From Cytophagales bacterium (GTDB lineage Bacteria; Bacteroidota; Bacteroidia; Cytophagales; UBA9547): DNA of 38,400 nt. The notes below the pieces were generated by a model. That model worked only from the letters and a program-made list of their open reading frames with translations, was not told the DNA's origin and did no database searches. The position numbers and the translations under genes are program-made. The stretch spans positions 1-38,400 of the forward strand of contig JACMRH010000490.1 of assembly GCA_014376535.1 (NCBI GenBank), read 5' to 3'. Below are positions 543-20,788 of the stretch, in pieces. The first letter of the stretch is position 1. Each line of letters begins with the position of its first letter.

Positions 543-572
543 TACGGTATTATATTAAATCTCCAAGATGAG

Positions 573-600
573 ATGCCAGACATTTGTCTGGCATTTTTTG
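573..600 (+). terminator. Rho-independent terminator
   Basis: Perfect stem ATGCCAGACA-TT-TGTCTGGCAT (573-594) followed by a T-run, just after the stop at 542. Confidence 0.85.
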
Positions 601-710
601 TTTTACACGAGCATAAATCTAAAAAAATTCACGTTGACGAAGTTTGAACCATCTTACGATGGAGGATAATCTGATTAAGATTTAATAGCAATGCATATCT
701 TTACAATATT

Positions 711-2096
711 ATGCAAAAGCTTATCATCAAAAATTTTCGGCAAATTTCTTATGCAGAAATAGACATCAAGAAATTCACCATTTTTATCGGGCCACAGGCG
801 AGTGGGAAGAGTACTATAGCTAAGCTGGTTTATTTTTTTAAATCCCTTAAACAAGATTTCCTCAAATTATTAATTGAAAGTGAAGAAAAACCTTCGGAAT
901 TACATATAGAGTATATCAAAAGCATCGAAGAGAAGTTTAAAGTATATTTTGGATCTTCTTTTGAACTAAGTGAAAAATTTGAATTAAAATATTTTTTTTC
1001 TTTTGAAGAGAATCTATATATAAGGCTTTATAGAAAGGTATCACTTCAGGTCGAATTTGAAAAAACTTATTTTTCCAAAATTATATTAGAAACAAAAATG
1101 GTAAGTGAAAAAATAAAAATTTTTTCACAGAAAAAGACAAAGACTGAAAGCAGAGTAGCATATCAATTCTACGACTCTATTAAAGAGAAATTTTTAAAAG
1201 ATTTGCAAACAGTCTCTGATAAAGTTTTTTATGATGATCGAGATCCTATTTTTTTTCCTGCAGGAAGGAATTTAACAGTGGCTTATCCTCAACATTTTTT
1301 AACACTCTTTTTTGGTGAACTTTCTAGCTTAATAGGTGAATTAAAGACAGATAATATTGAATCTAAGTCGATCGATTTACTACTCATAAAAGAATTTATT
1401 TCTTACTCACAATTTCTTTCTGATCAGTTTGTGGGCAGTGGATTTAATGATAATAATATATCGGATTATAATTCACAACACATTAGAACTGTAATAATTG
1501 ATAAAACAAATAAAATTATTAAAGGCAATTATGAAAATAAAGATGGTACTGAAAGAATCACTTTTGGATCAACCAGATTAGATACGGTTAAACTTGCCCA
1601 CGCCTCTTCTGGTCAACAAGAATCCATAAGAATACTTCAGGATATTTTCTTTATAATGAAAGGACACAAGGCATTTAGAATTTATGAAGAGCCTGAAGCT
1701 CATTTATTCCCTGAAGCCCAAAAACACCTGATAGAATTAATGGCTTTAATGGCAAACAAAACCCATAGCGAGGTTTTGATCACTACACATAGCCCTTACA
1801 TCCTTTCTATTATAAACAATCTCCTTTTTTATAATCAGACCATTAAAAGAAACCCTGAATCAGCAGAATATATTAAAAAGCGCTTTGGCGCTGAAAACTT
1901 AGACGAAACTCAAAATGAGAGGATTTATTTAAGTCCAGATGAAGTAAGTGTGTATTCATTAGGAAAAGATAAAGTAGAGCAAATAATAGATCCTGAGACT
2001 GGGTTAATCGGAGCTAATTTTCTAGATCAGGTCGCTGAAGAAATTTATCAGGACTTTGATTTTATGTACCCATTAAACCGCAAAGAGGAAAATTAA
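711..2096 (+). CDS. ABC/SMC-type AAA family ATPase (RecF/OLD-like head domain, no TOPRIM)
   Basis: Walker A 'IFIGPQASGKSTIAK', signature-like 'ASSGQQESIRIL', Walker B 'FRIYEEPEAHLFPEAQ', H-loop 'ITTHSPYIL'; ends soon after the H-loop region without a recognisable TOPRIM. Confidence 0.88.
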   Translation: MQKLIIKNFRQISYAEIDIKKFTIFIGPQASGKSTIAKLVYFFKSLKQDFLKLLIESEEKPSELHIEYIKSIEEKFKVYFGSSFELSEKFELKYFFSFEENLYIRLYRKVSLQVEFEKTYFSKIILETKMVSEKIKIFSQKKTKTESRVAYQFYDSIKEKFLKDLQTVSDKVFYDDRDPIFFPAGRNLTVAYPQHFLTLFFGELSSLIGELKTDNIESKSIDLLLIKEFISYSQFLSDQFVGSGFNDNNISDYNSQHIRTVIIDKTNKIIKGNYENKDGTERITFGSTRLDTVKLAHASSGQQESIRILQDIFFIMKGHKAFRIYEEPEAHLFPEAQKHLIELMALMANKTHSEVLITTHSPYILSIINNLLFYNQTIKRNPESAEYIKKRFGAENLDETQNERIYLSPDEVSVYSLGKDKVEQIIDPETGLIGANFLDQVAEEIYQDFDFMYPLNRKEEN

Positions 2097-2668
2097 TGAA
2101 TTTTTTAACCAAACTAAAAGAAGCATTTCCGGAGAGAACAACTGCAGAAACCATCATTACTACACCTCAGGTTTTTGTTTTGGAAGATGCTGTATCACAA
2201 CGATCATCAATAGTTGAAGAGAAAACTTATCACTGTTTTGAAATAACTAAAACGGAAGATATAGGACCTCTTGTCCATATTTGCACAGACGGTGATTTTA
2301 TAAAAAGAGGAGAATTTTACAGAGGTTCGCTTTTACCAAATAACCGATCGGATTCGCTGATTTTTTCTTCCCAACAAATTCTTTTTTTAGAATTAAAACT
2401 TAATGTTGAAGATCGGAATTCGTCCAGGGAAATATTCAAAGGAATTGATCAGCTTGAAAACTTCTTTACTTTTCTAATTGAAAACTTAACCGAAGAAATA
2501 TTTCATTCTTACTTCAAAACAGAATCAACCTTTTTCAGAATAGGAATAAGGGCAACTCCCAATACCCGATGGCAAAGGAATCAGGAATTTATAAACAGGA
2601 AAGCTCAATTTGGAGGAAAAACAGGTTGGTATGATTTAGAATACTCAATAAGCTTTAATTTTAACTAA
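2096..2668 (+). CDS. Uncharacterised 190-aa protein, putative PD-(D/E)xK-like nuclease partner of the upstream ATPase
   Basis: Start codon overlaps the ATPase stop (TAATGA); 'RSDSLIFSSQQILFLELKLN...KGIDQLENFF' is compatible with a D...ExK core followed by a helix containing Q. Confidence 0.5.
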   Translation: MNFLTKLKEAFPERTTAETIITTPQVFVLEDAVSQRSSIVEEKTYHCFEITKTEDIGPLVHICTDGDFIKRGEFYRGSLLPNNRSDSLIFSSQQILFLELKLNVEDRNSSREIFKGIDQLENFFTFLIENLTEEIFHSYFKTESTFFRIGIRATPNTRWQRNQEFINRKAQFGGKTGWYDLEYSISFNFN

Positions 2669-2684
2669 TTACTACAATCCACAC

Positions 2685-2717
2685 AACTTTGACAAAGTTC
2701 AAAACTTTGTCAAAGTT
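2685..2717. repeat. Nested palindromic intergenic repeat AACTTTGACAAAGTT-CAA-AACTTTGTCAAAGTT
   Basis: Two 15-bp arms that are exact reverse complements, each itself a palindrome (AACTTTG-N-CAAAGTT), spacer CAA. Confidence 0.9.
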
Positions 2718-13995: not shown

Positions 13996-15047
13996 TTCTT
14001 GTCATAAAAAATATTTTCAATGTCCTTATAAAGCCTGGTCCTGGCTTTACTATCATAATCAATGCATTTACGTTTTCTTCCTGCCCGGATTTTGGTATGC
14101 TGCAATTCAAACATTTTCAAAGGAAGTAAATAAGCAATTGCGATATCGTGTGAACCTGCCTGAGAGGGGCGTAATTTATTCAAAACTACTGCGTCATATG
14201 AATAGGCAATATTAAACTGCCTGTGGAAGGTATAAGCAACAACGGCAGCAACAGCTTCTGAACTGCGAAAGGTAACTCCTAATGCCAGCTTTTCTGAAAT
14301 AATAAACTGGTTGTAAAGGTCGACCTGTACGGGGGCATGTGCTGTAAATTTTACCAATAACCTGGGATTGTAAAGCACAGAATTGTTTATGGAAAAATTC
14401 ATTCCCGAAATCAGGTAGAAATGGCTTTGTTTTGTTCCTTCCCCTGCTCCAAAATAGGTGTACGGGTTCAGTGTTGGAATGGAAAGTCCGATTTTAAACT
14501 TGCTGTCATAATAATAAACACCCAGGCCAGTTTGCATCGCATACCGGTTAATGTTTGCTCCATTGTTCAATGCAGGATCTGTACTTAGAGAAGAGTTGGT
14601 TGGGTCGGTATTAGCATCTGAGAAATTTGTCTTCATTTCATTTACTCCCATTTGTATTCCGCCTGAAAACCGGCTATAGGTACTTAAACGGGCTATCACC
14701 GAATATGATACACCAACAAATGTGCTTTTGGTGATCCCCATTGACTCGTTCATGACATTAAGCGCCACAGCTGACCTGATCCTTAGCAATGGCATATCTA
14801 CACACACCGAACTTGTGACAGGTGCAGTTTTTATTCCAACCCATTGCCTTCTGTGAAGGGCTACCAGACTTATCTTTTCCTTACTGCCTGCCGCTGCGGG
14901 ATTAATGAGCGTGTAATTGTAATTGAAGAGGGTGAATTTTGTGTCTTGCTGACCGTACAAAGATGTATTCATGCAAAGCTGCATGCTGAGCACAAATGAT
15001 AGGCATTTAAAAAGGGAAGCGTGTTTATTTGGTATTGACAACTTCAA
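13992..15047 (-). CDS. PorP/SprF family type IX secretion system membrane protein
   Basis: 'QDTKFTLFNYNYTLINPAAAGSKEKISLVALHRRQWVGIKTAPVTSSVCVDMPL' is the PorP/SprF N-terminal signature; beta-barrel-like remainder. Confidence 0.92.
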   Translation of the reverse strand: MKLSIPNKHASLFKCLSFVLSMQLCMNTSLYGQQDTKFTLFNYNYTLINPAAAGSKEKISLVALHRRQWVGIKTAPVTSSVCVDMPLLRIRSAVALNVMNESMGITKSTFVGVSYSVIARLSTYSRFSGGIQMGVNEMKTNFSDANTDPTNSSLSTDPALNNGANINRYAMQTGLGVYYYDSKFKIGLSIPTLNPYTYFGAGEGTKQSHFYLISGMNFSINNSVLYNPRLLVKFTAHAPVQVDLYNQFIISEKLALGVTFRSSEAVAAVVAYTFHRQFNIAYSYDAVVLNKLRPSQAGSHDIAIAYLLPLKMFELQHTKIRAGRKRKCIDYDSKARTRLYKDIENIFYDKN

Positions 15048-18000
15048 CGATTCAGGGTCAGATGTGTAGTGTATTTGACTCCGTTGCTTAATTCAGCCAC
15101 CAAATAATAAGTGCCGACCGGAAGTTCCGATCCCTGGCAAGTCCCTTGTGTACAGGCTCCGGCCCAATCGTTTTTGTAATCAGCATTCCGATATACTAAA
15201 TCGCCCCAGCGATTAAATACATTCAAAGCCACTCTTACCTGTGGTGAAAGGTGGTAAACAGTATAAAAGTCATTTATTCCATCTCCGTTAGGTGTAAACG
15301 CGTCAGGTAAAAAGGCTTCTCTTTTTTTGAGCACGATCTCCACTTTTGCATTGTCGCATAATTTCGGAACCCCTCTGTCGCAAACCTGATATTCTAATAT
15401 TTCCACTGCATCTATTTCACTGCTTACTTTATACGTCCAAAAACCTTTTGAGTCAACGCTCAGCGTTCCGAAGCGCGGAGTGGTGATGAAAGAAAAATCC
15501 TCAAATTGAAGTTTGTCGTTAGGGTCAGAATCGTTGTCTATCGGATGGTTCTCAGCATTTAAGATCAAATCCTGGTCCAAAAACGCTGTATAATGATCAT
15601 CATTGGCCTTTGGTTTGCAATTGTTTACAGATATAAACACATCTAAACTGTCGGTACATCCATTTTGACTGCTTATGATCACGTACCTTCCATTGTCAGA
15701 ATACTGCGAAATAGGCAAATAAAGATCAGAAGAATTTTGAACCCGGTTGCCTGGCAGCTTCCAGAAAGCTGTTCCAGTTGTGCCTGCTTTAATTCGTATA
15801 GGTTCTTTTTCACAGACTACAAGTGGCAAAGCAATTATGGCCGGAGGATATTTAATGTCCAGTGAAAGTGATTCTTCGGAGGAACATTGGTTAATGTCTG
15901 TTCCTTTGAGTACATATTTCCCAACATCCTTTGCACCAAAGGATGGAATGACCAGGTTTGCCTGGCTGGAATGCTGGCCACCGGGAGAAGTCCAGTCATA
16001 ACTTATCCCCCCTGTTGCTTTAAATGTCAGTTTTGTTTTTGAACAGTAAGTTCCTCCTGACACACCTGTAATTAATACCAGTGGCAAAGTGTTAACTGTT
16101 GCTTTTACATTCGCCCTGGGGCTCTCACATCCTTTTACTACAGCAGAAACCCAGTAATTTTTTACTGACACATTTTGTGTATTGGGTATGGGAACTTGTG
16201 TTGACCTGATACCTCCTGAAGCAACATTGTACCAAAACAAGGAATCTTTCAGGCTGGTTAATGGCCTGGCAAGGTCGCCATAACAGTATTTCACATCCGG
16301 GATCAACGGGGCTGCCGGAAGGGCATTTACCGTGATCTTAACCAGTTTGCGGAAACTCTCACAAGAGTTTATAGTTTGAGAAACGAAAGCCTGATTTATT
16401 CCAATATCGTTTCTGTTTATAGAAGGAGCCTGAGTAGTAAATGTTGTGATGGTCGGGCCCGAATACCATTGAAGTGCGATTCCGCTTGCCAGGTATGAAA
16501 TGGTTCCGGTGCTTTCACAAATGACCTGGTCAATGCCAGCCGGGGCTGCCGGGATATTGTTAATTTGTATAGTTTCTGTTGATTTTAAGCCTTCGCATCC
16601 ATTGACGGTTTGGCTCACCTGGTAAATGGTGGCCTGAGCAATGTTTGTATTGACCGAAGGTGTAAGACCAGATCCTGCGGTAGAGCCTGGAAAATACCAT
16701 AAAAGACTAGTTCCGCTTGCCTTGAAAGAAAGTGTTCCGGTTTTCTGACAGAGTGTGGTGTCCTTCACCAGCGGTGCGGAAGGCAGGGCCTTGACCACAA
16801 GGGTGGCCTTGCTCCTTGGTCCTTCGCAAAGCGAGACGGTTTGAGAAACCCAAAGAGAAACTGTATCAGGGTTAGAAATAGGAAAATCCGGAGAGGAAAC
16901 AATCGTACCTCCGGAGGCAGTATTGTACCACTTCAATTGGGCACCTGTCGCGGTTAAGGTGATGTTACCTGCACTCTGACAAACAGAAACATCCTGAGTA
17001 AGAGGAGCTACAGGAAGCGCTTTAACAGAAATCAGAACTTTAGCTCTTGGACTCTCACAGCCATTTGATGTTTGGGTTACCCATTTGGCAGTGGTATCCG
17101 GAATGTTCAGATAGAATACAGGGGCAATAGTATTTGCTATTCCTCCTGATGACACATCATACCAATTTAGACTTGCCCCGCTGGCTTTGGCAGTATAAAG
17201 GCCGGAAGTACGGCAGGTATCAAGGTTGACAGTAGCCGGTACGACAGGAGGCGTTTTAATCAGGATGGTCAGTTGTAACCTTGGGCCTTCGCAGCCATTA
17301 AACCCCTGGCTTACCCACTTACTGGTATTTATTGGAATGTTGAGATCAAAAACAGGAACAATGTTACTTGCTGTTCCTCCGGAAGAGAAATCATACCATT
17401 TAAGGTTTGTGCCTGAGGAAGTCAGCGAAATATTTCCCATTTGCTGGCAGGTGTCAATGTTCTTCAGAACAGGCAGACCCGGAATTTTCCTGATCGCCAC
17501 ATCAACCTGCGATGTCGGACCTTCGCATCCATTCATGGTCTGGCTTACCCATTGGGCAGTTGTATCGGGCATATTTAAGTTTAATGTTGGGGTGGCAGTC
17601 AACCTTGTTCCCAAAGTAGCGGAGGCATACCAGGACAGTCCTGTTCCTGTCGCTTTTAAAGTGTAAGTACCGGTGGTCTGGCAGGTGTCAAGGTTGATAG
17701 TGGCGGGTGCGGCAGGAGTCGTTTTGATCAGGATGGTCAGTTGTAACCTTGGGCCTTCGCAGCCATTAAACCCCTGGCTAACCCATTTACTGGTATTGAT
17801 AGGGATGTTAAGATCATAAACAGGAACAATGTTACTTGCTGTTCCGCCGGAAGAGAAATCATACCATTTAAGGTTTGTGCCTGAGGAAGCCAGCGAAATA
17901 TTTCCCATTTGCTGGCAGGTGTCAATGTTCTTCAGAACAGGCAGGCCTGGAATTTTCCTGATCGCCACATCAACCTGCGATCTCGGCCCCTCGCATCCGT

Positions 18001-20788
18001 TCAAAGTCTGGCTTACCCATTGGGCAGTTGTATCGGGCATATTTAAGTTAAATGTTGGGGTGGCAGTCAACCTTGTTCCCAAAGTGGCGGTGGCATACCA
18101 GGCCAGTCCTGTTCCTGTCGCTTTTAAAGTGTAAGTACCGGTGGTCTGGCAGGTGTCAAGGTTGATAGTGGCGGGTGCTGAAGGCTTTACCTTTATAATC
18201 ACATCCGCTTTGGACCTGGGCCCTTCACATCCGTTTAAGGTTTGGCTCACCCAGCAGAAAGTAGTATCAGGTACATTCAGGTTGAATATGGGGGCAACAT
18301 TACTGGAGGTCCCTCCAGTAGCCACAGTATACCAGCCTAATCCGACACCAAATGCCTGCAAGGTATAGCTACCGGTAGTCTGGCATGTATCTAGGCTCTT
18401 CACTGTTGGTATACCGGGGGTCTTACGTATCGCGATAGTAAGTTGTTTTCTAGGCCCTTCGCATCCGTTCAATATCTGGCTTACCCACCTGGAGGTAGTA
18501 TCAGGAATGTTCAGGTTAAAAGATGGAGTTGCCGTCACCCTAGTTCCCAAAGTGGCAGTAGTGTACCAGCCCAGACCTGTTCCGGTCGTCTTCAATGCAT
18601 AAGTTCCGATTGTCTGGCAGGTGTCCAGGTTAGAAGTCACAGGTGCTGAAGGCAATGCCTTTATCATGACATCAACTTTGGCCCTGGGCCCTTCACATCC
18701 GTTCAAGGTTTGGCTTACCCAGTGGGAAGTAGTATCAGGAACATTCAGGTTGACTACCGGCGCAATAATACTGGAAGTCCCGCCAGTAGCCAAAGTATAC
18801 CAGCTTAAACCGACACCACTAGCCTGCAAGGTATAGCTACCGGCAGTCTGGCAGGTATCCAAATTTTTCACTGTGGGCAAGCCGGGGATCTTCCGGATGG
18901 CAATTGATATTTGCGCCCTTGGGCTCTCGCATCCGCCGATAGTTTGGCTCACCCATTTGGAGGTAGTGTCAGGAAAGTTCAGGTTGTAAACCGGTGCAGT
19001 GGTCGTTTTGCCTGTTATTCCGGTAGGTAAATTGTACCAGGTCAGGTTTGTACCGGTAGCAGTCAAGGAATAATTCCCACTTTGCTGACAGGTATCAATA
19101 TTTTTGGTGAGCGGTGCAGCAGGAAGTTTGGTGATGATCTGGAGCGTATCAAAAAACTTTACCCATCCGCCAAAGAACACATCATCAAATGCAAAATCAT
19201 TTCCAAATGCAGTAAGGTTTTTAGATTCTATCCTAATATCGGCAGTTGTATTTGTTCCTGAGTTCCAGCTTTGAGAAAACTGCTCCCATACCTTATTATT
19301 AGTTGGTGTAAATAAACTTCCAATCACCTGTCCATTTATAGTAAACTGGAGTATAGGAGAGCTAATGCCTGTAAGATCATTTACCCAAATCGAAAAATTG
19401 TAGGCCGTGTTTGGGGACACCGAAATAGTTTCCCTCCAGAGGTAGAGATTGGCAATAGTAGAACCATCCACATTCAACATTTTTCCCGAACCTGTTGTGT
19501 GATCAACAGCATTGTCCTGGAATTTATTAGATAACTTCGGATCGGTTACTACATTATAATCAGTTCTACTAAGATATCTACTGTTAAACGTAGAATCTGT
19601 CCTGCTCTCATATCTATATTGAGACATAAACCCAGAATTCCCTAAACTAAAATCCGGGTTCAAAATGAGATTTCCAGAGTAAATGGAGTCTTTGACGATG
19701 TATTGGGTTACACCTGGCAGGGGGGGTGATGCAAAATTTTTTCCCTGTATAACTCCCTTGTCCCATACCGGGGAAGGGCGCCCGGTGGCATTGACCATTA
19801 CACTGTCTCCCAGGCAAACAGTTTGGTCTGGACCAGCATACAAAGCATCATCATTTACAATATTGTAATAGGTTGTGGTGTAATTGCCGGCGACATCCTT
19901 TGTAATGCCACCGCTGCTCACCGAACTTATCGAGATGGTAATATTTTCATCTAATTCATGTATGTTGTCATTGACAATGGTAAGCGGAATTGGAAAACTA
20001 TCTGACTTAGTTGTATACTGACCTGCAGGGATGGTTAGACTTGATAAGTTGAAATCAGTCCCAGATGTTGCATTAGAGAAATTAGTTGAAAAGGTCACCG
20101 TCAGGCCACCAGCAGGTACAATGCCGCTTACTTTTATTTCCGGACGCGAAACAGCACTTTCAGGAGCTGAATAATTTGGTTTTGTAAATGTTACTACAGG
20201 CGTAAAACTGATGTTGACTTCATCAACAAAATTTCCATAATCAGGTAGACCTCCAGCCGTTCCTTTTGGTTCTAAAGACACCTGATAATTACCAGTAGGT
20301 AAGCCTACAATATACGATCCACGGTAATATTTCCATCCGGTACTATCTGTAGAGGAAGATTTCAATATTGCAAGCTTTGTGGTGCCCGCTAAATCATAGA
20401 TATTCAATTCCATTGTATCTGAACCATACCTGCCCTGATGGTAGTAGGAATACGACATGTTTTCTCCAAAAACGAGGAACATGTTCTGATACATCCGGGC
20501 GGCATACTTCGCATTGAGCTCTATGTGTTGATTTCCCACCGCAGATAATTCTCCGCTTGTTGCACCTAATTTCCTTTGTTCAATATTATAATCAGGAGCA
20601 GTGGAGTTCCATCCAGGCACTCTTGTTCCAATCACTGCGGCAGGTGCATTAGCTGCGATGTTGAATGAAAATCCAGAAAAGATGACCGGACTTTCAAAAC
20701 CCCCATTGGTTAAAACCCTACTTTGAGAAGAAACATCTTTATAAGTAAATACTGAAAAAATGAGAAATATGAGGTAAAATCTTTTCAT
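15044..20788 (-). CDS. Giant repetitive cell-surface protein: Calx-beta domain, ~13 Ig-like (CHU_C-associated type) repeats, T9SS type B sorting domain
   Basis: Signal peptide 'MKRFYLIFLIFSVFTYKDVSSQ'; Calx-beta-like 'GTDFNLSSLTIPAGQ...IVNDNIHELDENITISI'; repeats '..LDTCQTTGTYTLKATGTGLAWY...PDTTAQWVSQTLNGCEGPRSQVDVAI'; C-terminus 'AFLPDAFTPNGDGINDFYTVYHLSPQVRVALNVFNRWGDLVYRNADYKNDWAG...LPVGTYYLVAELSNG'. Confidence 0.93.
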   Translation of the reverse strand: MKRFYLIFLIFSVFTYKDVSSQSRVLTNGGFESPVIFSGFSFNIAANAPAAVIGTRVPGWNSTAPDYNIEQRKLGATSGELSAVGNQHIELNAKYAARMYQNMFLVFGENMSYSYYHQGRYGSDTMELNIYDLAGTTKLAILKSSSTDSTGWKYYRGSYIVGLPTGNYQVSLEPKGTAGGLPDYGNFVDEVNISFTPVVTFTKPNYSAPESAVSRPEIKVSGIVPAGGLTVTFSTNFSNATSGTDFNLSSLTIPAGQYTTKSDSFPIPLTIVNDNIHELDENITISISSVSSGGITKDVAGNYTTTYYNIVNDDALYAGPDQTVCLGDSVMVNATGRPSPVWDKGVIQGKNFASPPLPGVTQYIVKDSIYSGNLILNPDFSLGNSGFMSQYRYESRTDSTFNSRYLSRTDYNVVTDPKLSNKFQDNAVDHTTGSGKMLNVDGSTIANLYLWRETISVSPNTAYNFSIWVNDLTGISSPILQFTINGQVIGSLFTPTNNKVWEQFSQSWNSGTNTTADIRIESKNLTAFGNDFAFDDVFFGGWVKFFDTLQIITKLPAAPLTKNIDTCQQSGNYSLTATGTNLTWYNLPTGITGKTTTAPVYNLNFPDTTSKWVSQTIGGCESPRAQISIAIRKIPGLPTVKNLDTCQTAGSYTLQASGVGLSWYTLATGGTSSIIAPVVNLNVPDTTSHWVSQTLNGCEGPRAKVDVMIKALPSAPVTSNLDTCQTIGTYALKTTGTGLGWYTTATLGTRVTATPSFNLNIPDTTSRWVSQILNGCEGPRKQLTIAIRKTPGIPTVKSLDTCQTTGSYTLQAFGVGLGWYTVATGGTSSNVAPIFNLNVPDTTFCWVSQTLNGCEGPRSKADVIIKVKPSAPATINLDTCQTTGTYTLKATGTGLAWYATATLGTRLTATPTFNLNMPDTTAQWVSQTLNGCEGPRSQVDVAIRKIPGLPVLKNIDTCQQMGNISLASSGTNLKWYDFSSGGTASNIVPVYDLNIPINTSKWVSQGFNGCEGPRLQLTILIKTTPAAPATINLDTCQTTGTYTLKATGTGLSWYASATLGTRLTATPTLNLNMPDTTAQWVSQTMNGCEGPTSQVDVAIRKIPGLPVLKNIDTCQQMGNISLTSSGTNLKWYDFSSGGTASNIVPVFDLNIPINTSKWVSQGFNGCEGPRLQLTILIKTPPVVPATVNLDTCRTSGLYTAKASGASLNWYDVSSGGIANTIAPVFYLNIPDTTAKWVTQTSNGCESPRAKVLISVKALPVAPLTQDVSVCQSAGNITLTATGAQLKWYNTASGGTIVSSPDFPISNPDTVSLWVSQTVSLCEGPRSKATLVVKALPSAPLVKDTTLCQKTGTLSFKASGTSLLWYFPGSTAGSGLTPSVNTNIAQATIYQVSQTVNGCEGLKSTETIQINNIPAAPAGIDQVICESTGTISYLASGIALQWYSGPTITTFTTQAPSINRNDIGINQAFVSQTINSCESFRKLVKITVNALPAAPLIPDVKYCYGDLARPLTSLKDSLFWYNVASGGIRSTQVPIPNTQNVSVKNYWVSAVVKGCESPRANVKATVNTLPLVLITGVSGGTYCSKTKLTFKATGGISYDWTSPGGQHSSQANLVIPSFGAKDVGKYVLKGTDINQCSSEESLSLDIKYPPAIIALPLVVCEKEPIRIKAGTTGTAFWKLPGNRVQNSSDLYLPISQYSDNGRYVIISSQNGCTDSLDVFISVNNCKPKANDDHYTAFLDQDLILNAENHPIDNDSDPNDKLQFEDFSFITTPRFGTLSVDSKGFWTYKVSSEIDAVEILEYQVCDRGVPKLCDNAKVEIVLKKREAFLPDAFTPNGDGINDFYTVYHLSPQVRVALNVFNRWGDLVYRNADYKNDWAGACTQGTCQGSELPVGTYYLVAELSNGVKYTTHLTLNR
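16085..19115 (-). repeat. ~13 tandem in-frame repeats of ~78 aa (~234 bp) inside the giant surface protein
   Basis: Aligned by eye: each unit has DTC...WY...WVSQ..NGCEGPR. Confidence 0.9.

What the first reader, a model, noticed from the sequence alone, without database searches (positions are those of the whole stretch)
711..2668. Two-gene ABC-ATPase + putative PD-(D/E)xK module: candidate uncharacterised defence-type system
Seen: an ATPase with a complete ABC/SMC-type head (GPQASGKST, SSGQQES, EEPEAHLFP, TTHSP) but no TOPRIM overlaps by start/stop codons a 190-aa protein containing 'RSDSLIFSSQQILFLELKLN...KGIDQLENFF', which fits a D...ExK...Q nuclease core. Established: translationally coupled ATPase + small nuclease pairs are a recurring defence architecture (Septu PtuA/PtuB with HNH; PARIS AriA/AriB with TOPRIM; Gabija GajA with TOPRIM). 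This pair matches none of these by effector type. The unit is bounded by a strong terminator upstream and a palindromic repeat downstream, next to core gene parE. Inference: a sensor ATPase gating a PD-(D/E)xK effector.
Basis: partly seen in the sequence, partly recalled or inferred. Interest (0 to 1): 0.75.

Follow-up and report, generated by a model that had tools for sequence, protein, structure and literature searches.

The report
WonAB-type ATPase–nuclease phage-defence gene pair
Two overlapping genes in a Bacteroidota genome encode an ABC-type ATPase and a small PD-(D/E)xK-fold nuclease; [quoted passage not shown]

Summary
ORF 711-2096 (461 aa) is a full ABC/OLD-type ATPase with no TOPRIM domain. 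ORF 2096-2668 (190 aa) overlaps its stop codon by one base. The predicted nuclease core is well supported. Across 51 partner proteins found through the ATPase, D65, D86, E99, K101 and Q119 are invariant. AlphaFold gives a confident (pLDDT 92.6) α-β-β-β-α-β core. The Foldseek PDB list is led by PD-(D/E)xK enzymes, although no single hit is significant.

'Sensor ATPase gating a PD-(D/E)xK effector' is the best reading. But 'uncharacterised' is wrong for the architecture: WonAB of Vibrio cholerae (2025), the in-silico 'OLD-ABC ATPase + novel REase' class, PADLOC candidate PDC-M29 and, by analogy, PD-T4-4 already describe it. Of the 80 best ATPase relatives in GTDB genomes, 77 carry a related small protein, nearly always immediately downstream. 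Thirteen further pairs lie on IMG/VR contigs. The pair is not tied to parE elsewhere.

What is new is modest: a supported Bacteroidota clade whose effector is longer (190-210 versus about 140 aa) with its own conserved residues (HxC, QRN). Mechanism by analogy: ATPase-gated abortive infection, probably through RNA cleavage and translation arrest. Nothing was tested experimentally.

The parts
711..2096 (+). OLD/AAA_15-type ABC ATPase, 461 aa (component A, presumed sensor/regulator)
   Evidence: Pfam AAA_15 E 3.9e-25; PADLOC PDC-M29A 5.7e-21 and PD-T4-4_A 5.3e-21; AF2 pLDDT 85.8, Foldseek best PtuA, AriA, Rad50; no TOPRIM
789..812 (+). Walker A (GPQASGKS, residues 27-34; K33 corresponds to WonA K34)
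   Evidence: G27, G32, K33, S34 invariant in 39 relatives
1266..1268 (+). R186 (corresponds to WonA R182)
   Evidence: invariant in 39 relatives; WonA R182A abolishes defence (PMC12137116)
1605..1622 (+). ABC signature SSGQQE (residues 299-304)
   Evidence: invariant in 39 relatives
1686..1697 (+). Walker B EEPE (residues 326-329; E327 corresponds to WonA E300)
   Evidence: invariant in 39 relatives; E-to-H spacing of 33 as in WonA
1788..1790 (+). H-loop H360 (corresponds to WonA H333)
   Evidence: invariant in 39 relatives
2096..2668 (+). Small protein, 190 aa, PD-(D/E)xK-type nuclease-like fold (component B, presumed effector)
   Evidence: AF2 pLDDT 92.6, pTM 0.89, order H-E-E-E-H-E around the motif; Foldseek PDB list led by LmuA, SfsA, HamA, Can2, RecU, XPF, FokI but none E<=0.001; PDC-M29B E 0.0013
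2288..2290 (+). D65, conserved acidic residue of the (H)xCxDG motif
   Evidence: invariant in 51 partners
2351..2353 (+). D86, motif II aspartate just before strand 87-90
   Evidence: invariant in 51 partners; model strand boundaries
2390..2398 (+). E99-L-K101, ExK motif at the end of strand 95-100
   Evidence: invariant in 51 partners; WonB K71A, presumed equivalent, is inactive (PMC12137116)
2450..2452 (+). Q119 in helix 110-130 (motif IV-like glutamine)
   Evidence: invariant in 51 partners
2094..2098 (+). TAATG stop/start overlap coupling the two genes
   Evidence: sequence; relatives overlap by 4, 8 or 11 bases or sit within a few bases
570..603 (+). Intrinsic terminator of the upstream gene (stem 570-597 plus T-run)
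2685..2717 (.). Perfect palindrome (15-bp arms, 3-nt loop) between the pair and parE
   Evidence: one other near-identical copy in the genome, C112:4289-4321

Best explanation
[quoted passage not shown] The ABC ATPase dimerises around ATP, senses a phage-induced cue and holds or activates the small PD-(D/E)xK nuclease through its C-terminal extension. On infection the nuclease is released or switched on and shuts down the cell (abortive infection), most likely by cutting RNA (tRNA or rRNA) and stopping translation, as proposed for WonAB. Shown here by computation: the gene pair, the ATPase class, the nuclease-like fold and invariant motif, near-obligate pairing, mobility and carriage on viral contigs. 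Inferred: phage sensing, ATP gating, complex formation, RNA as target, cell shutdown.
For: D65/D86/E99/K101/Q119 invariant in 51 partners found through the ATPase alone. Confident model with a PD-(D/E)xK-like topology. 77 of 80 ATPase relatives have a B homologue, nearly always immediately downstream on the same strand. The four WonA residues needed for defence (K34, R182, E300, H333) map to invariant K33, R186, E327, H360. A WonB primer printed in the paper decodes to CDWILS; the B proteins L126, L127, L131 on viral contigs read [RK]CDW[ML][IL][VI]D at that site. PDC-M29A and PDC-M29B match 30/39 and 34/51 family members. Of 18 IMG/VR loci found with the ATPase, 13 carry a B homologue; on the three contigs whose flanks were checked, terminase, portal, major head or CI-type repressor genes are close by. 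None of 80 relatives lies near parE, and six parE loci of the same taxonomic family lack the pair.
Against: No experiment on this pair. The V. cholerae WonAB proteins could not be fetched, so homology to WonAB itself rests on motifs and on published statements. The window B matches PDC-M29B only weakly (E 0.0013 over 56 residues). No Foldseek hit for B reaches significance. The nearest neighbours of relatives are mostly ordinary genes, with only scattered PADLOC hits among 123 and no control set. The target (RNA or DNA) is unknown. The effector is about 50 aa longer than WonB and could differ in target.
Confidence: 0.78

Rival explanations
1. DNA-targeting restriction variant: the ATPase recognises phage DNA or replication intermediates and licenses B to cut DNA, sparing the host, rather than cutting RNA abortively.
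For: PD-(D/E)xK enzymes are mostly DNases; the Foldseek list is dominated by DNA nucleases such as LmuA, HamA, RecU, XPF, FokI; the ATPase resembles Rad50 and PtuA.
Against: WonB leaves chromosomal DNA intact and blocks translation (PMC12137116); no methylase or recognition subunit accompanies the pair.
Confidence: 0.25
2. PD-T4-4 homologue: same system as the E. coli ATPase + PD-(D/E)xK pair of Vassallo 2022.
For: ATPase matches PD-T4-4_A at E 5e-21; same two-gene layout; D...xK...Q-like pattern in its B protein.
Against: The B proteins show no detectable homology: hhalign probability 0.1%, BLASTP E 0.2; an E. coli pair scores 768 bits to its best PD-T4-4_A model against 73 for the window.
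Confidence: 0.05
3. Toxin-antitoxin pair maintaining itself or a mobile element, with the ATPase as antitoxin and no phage-sensing role.
For: Two coupled genes, small presumed toxic nuclease, patchy distribution.
Against: For WonAB simple sequestration was excluded: WonB is toxic only when WonA is present (PMC12137116).
Confidence: 0.1
4. Housekeeping DNA-repair module (Rad50/SbcC-like ATPase with a nuclease).
For: ABC head resembles Rad50; some chromosomal copies stand alone beside core genes.
Against: Rare (12 of 395 class genomes have even a related ATPase at E<=1e-10), no fixed synteny, present inside phage structural modules.
Confidence: 0.04

Closest known systems
WonAB (V. cholerae WASA-1 prophage; PMC12137116, Nat Microbiol 2025)
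   Same: Two-gene operon, OLD-type ABC ATPase followed by a small PD-(D/E)xK protein; the four ATPase residues and the nuclease lysine shown essential have invariant counterparts here; related pairs sit on phage contigs
   Different: B is 190 aa here against about 140 aa (16.1 kDa) for WonB, with an added N-terminal part, an insert between ExK and Q, and an HxC/QRN pattern; host phylum differs; no activity data here
OLD-ABC ATPase + novel REase (Krishnan et al. 2020, as cited in PMC12137116 and PMC12409358)
   Same: Same operon architecture and same predicted effector superfamily; this is the broad class to which the window pair most naturally belongs
PDC-M29 (PADLOC 2.0 candidate system)
   Same: Both components match (A 5.7e-21; B 0.0013); most relatives match both models
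   Different: Window B scores only at the margin; PDC-M29 is an untested candidate
PD-T4-4 (Vassallo 2022; PMC9519451)
   Same: ATPase plus small PD-(D/E)xK protein, selected as an anti-phage system in E. coli
   Different: B protein is not detectably homologous; the ATPase belongs to another subfamily
PARIS AriA/AriB, Septu PtuA/PtuB, Gabija GajA
   Same: OLD/AAA_15-type ABC ATPase fold (Foldseek hits PtuA and AriA; the PADLOC AriA model covers the same region as AAA_15)
   Different: Effectors are TOPRIM (AriB, GajA) or HNH (PtuB); neither domain is present here

Membership tests
[quoted passage not shown]
[quoted passage not shown]
   K33, R186, E327, H360 invariant in 39 relatives; equivalence is by motif and spacing, not by alignment to WonA
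[quoted passage not shown]
[quoted passage not shown]
   WonAB records were not found in the collections tried; homology shown only to short-type B proteins on viral contigs, some with the CDW motif (hhalign 79.7%, E 1.5e-5)
[quoted passage not shown]
   needs experiment
PDC-M29 (PADLOC) | A and B both match the models and are adjacent | tested here: met
   A 5.7e-21, B 0.0013 at the D/ExK/Q core, adjacent; B hit is marginal
PD-T4-4 | Component B homologous to PD-T4-4_B | tested here: not met
   no PD-T4-4_B match for window B; hhalign 0.1%
PARIS | Second gene a DUF4435/TOPRIM AriB | tested here: not met
Septu | Second gene an HNH PtuB | tested here: not met
   no HNH family; PD-(D/E)xK-like model
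Gabija / OLD | TOPRIM fused to the ATPase, GajB helicase partner | tested here: not met
   ATPase ends after the ABC head plus short C-terminal extension

The most novel reading that the evidence does not exclude
The clade containing the window pair (L030, L032, L033, L034, probably L031 and L038) is a distinct subtype whose enlarged effector, with its own conserved H61-x-C63-x-D65 and R161-N162 residues, recognises a different substrate or is activated by a different phage cue than WonB.
Probability: 0.25. Interest if true: 0.5.

Novelty: new member of a known kind. Interest (0 to 1): 0.36.

Why it matters
It extends a recently characterised class of ABC-ATPase-gated nuclease defences with a deep Bacteroidota subtype, and the alignments define which effector residues are universal and which are subtype-specific. 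That gives ready mutants and comparison points for finding what these ATPases sense and what the nuclease cuts, both still unknown for WonAB.

Tried and rejected
Single-sequence searches with the 190-aa protein found nothing in viral contigs, phages, plasmids or 395 class genomes outside its own; going through the ATPase was necessary. Sequence searches of the PDB with B or its profile found nothing. PD-T4-4 looked like the answer because of the small Enterobacteriaceae plasmid pairs, but its B protein is not homologous. The profile-profile comparison was circular (window in both alignments) and is not used. A profile from the short type on viral contigs alone does not pick the window B out of shuffles, which shows how divergent it is. 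A PADLOC scan of flanking genes was too sparse, and lacked a control, to argue for defence-island enrichment. In the tree, L031 was represented by a neighbouring ATPase by mistake and its position there should be ignored.

Full report
Observation. Two ORFs lie at 711-2096 (461 aa) and 2096-2668 (190 aa) on the + strand, joined by a TAATG overlap. The first has all ABC-ATPase head motifs and is Pfam AAA_15 (E 3.9e-25); nothing resembling TOPRIM is found. The second has no significant Pfam or NCBIfam match and a marginal match to PADLOC PDC-M29B exactly over the D...ExK...Q stretch (E 0.0013). An intrinsic terminator precedes the pair (570-597), and a perfect 33-nt palindrome (2685-2717) separates it from parE. 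The window begins at a contig end, so the left neighbourhood is unknown.

Relatives. The small protein alone finds no relatives. The ATPase does: a phage scaffold, small enterobacterial plasmids and several Bacteroidota genomes, most with a small downstream gene. A genome-wide scan with an ATPase alignment gave the 80 best loci in GTDB species, 28-45% identical. A profile of the partner proteins finds a B homologue in 77 of 80; the hits are immediately downstream except for L040 (larger gap), L077 (frame-broken copy) and an extra second hit in L065. L032 keeps only a C-terminal remnant of B; L070 and L107 have none. Since loci were chosen by the ATPase only, the pairing is an independent result.

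Nuclease reading. In 51 partner proteins D65, D86, E99, K101 and Q119 are invariant. A profile of 16 partners without the window protein scores it 19.5 bits against 10.0 for the best of 3000 shuffles, in the same register; the profile of 50 partners gives E 2.1e-16. AlphaFold2 gives pLDDT 92.6 and pTM 0.89, with strands 59-63, 87-90 and 95-100, helix 110-130 and strand 145-150. D86 stands just before the second core strand, E99/K101 at the end of the third, Q119 on the following helix: the standard PD-(D/E)xK order. Foldseek against the PDB is led by LmuA and SfsA, with HamA, Can2, RecU, BspD6I, XPF and FokI among the first dozen, but no hit passes E 0.001 and unrelated folds are mixed in. The fold is therefore well supported by motif plus topology, not by a significant structural match.

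ATPase reading. AlphaFold2 pLDDT 85.8; Foldseek finds PtuA, AriA and Rad50 heads. Twenty-six columns are invariant in 39 relatives. They include K33, R186, E327 and H360. WonA K34A, R182A, E300A and H333A each abolish defence (PMC12137116); the E-to-H spacing of 33 residues is identical. The WonA sequence itself was not available, so this correspondence is by motif and spacing.

What it is. WonAB is described as an OLD-type ABC ATPase plus a small variant PD-(D/E)xK nuclease; K71A of WonB kills activity; WonB toxicity needs WonA; DNA stays intact and translation stops. The authors place it near a class predicted by Krishnan et al. [quoted passage not shown] A 2026 survey again lists OLD-ABC ATPases paired with PD-(D/E)XK nucleases around BREX (PMC12839542). 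PADLOC already holds PDC-M29, which matches 30/39 ATPases and 34/51 partners here. A WonB primer from the paper decodes to CDWILS; partners in L126, L127 and L131 read RCDWMIVD, KCDWLLVD and RCDWLLID at this site (the decoding is mine). PD-T4-4 itself is excluded as family because the B proteins are unrelated in sequence.

Mobility. None of the 80 relatives has parE or the other window neighbours nearby. Six parE loci from the same taxonomic family lack the pair. Closest relatives sit beside different genes (glyA, ridA, yidC by my reading). Of 18 IMG/VR contigs found with the ATPase, 13 carry a B homologue. On the three contigs whose flanks were scanned, the pair follows terminase and portal genes (L121), lies between head-protease and minor-head/portal genes (L128), or sits beside a CI-type repressor (L131). 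GC of the pair (about 28-34%) is below that of the following region (about 37-42%). This fits a mobile accessory cassette.

What is distinctive. The window ATPase groups with L030, L032, L033 and L034 (SH-aLRT 95). The B proteins of this group, with L031 and L038, are 190-210 aa instead of about 140 and share extra invariant residues H61, C63, R84, R161, N162 and G173. Profile comparison with short B proteins from viral contigs still aligns D65, D86, ExK and Q (probability 79.7%, E 1.5e-5). This is a divergent subtype, not a new kind.

Mechanism and confidence. Most likely: an ATP-dependent dimeric sensor gates a nuclease that aborts infection, probably by RNA cleavage (about 0.78 for the general model, lower for the RNA target). 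Shown: genes, motifs, fold prediction, near-obligate pairing, mobility. Inferred: sensing, gating, complex, target, abortive outcome.

Noticed in passing
window 2685-2717; G000:C112:4289-4321 (L117): A 33-nt perfect palindrome AACTTTGACAAAGTT-NNN-AACTTTGTCAAAGTT occurs only twice in the genome assembly (exact pattern); function unknown, no U-run at the copy before parE.
   Followed up: partly
L031:3726-5594: Immediately upstream of a close relative of the pair lies a second ATPase (426 aa) plus a 194-aa protein; PADLOC reports HEC-01-type hits among the pooled flanks, suggesting two ATPase-nuclease modules side by side.
   Followed up: partly
L032:4150-4450: A 43%-identical relative has an intact ATPase but only the C-terminal remnant of B, apparently an internal deletion.
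   Followed up: no
L070 and L107: Two relatives of the ATPase without a recognisable B partner downstream.
   Followed up: no
L003:2682-4004: On the faecal phage scaffold carrying the pair, an upstream 440-aa protein resembles AbiH/SIR2-like defence proteins (my reading, not tested).
   Followed up: no
L002 and L005 (E. coli, Klebsiella plasmids of about 4.3-4.5 kb): Tiny plasmids whose main cargo is a PD-T4-4 pair (typed by PADLOC for L002; L005 by its matching layout).
   Followed up: no
L121, L128: The pair sits inside or next to the head/packaging gene block of phages, an unusual position for a defence cargo.
   Followed up: partly
window 15044-20788 (-): A 1914-aa surface protein with many repeats of about 80 aa (CQTxGxYTLxAxGxGLxWY) and what looks like a gliding/secretion-type C-terminal domain.
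   Followed up: no
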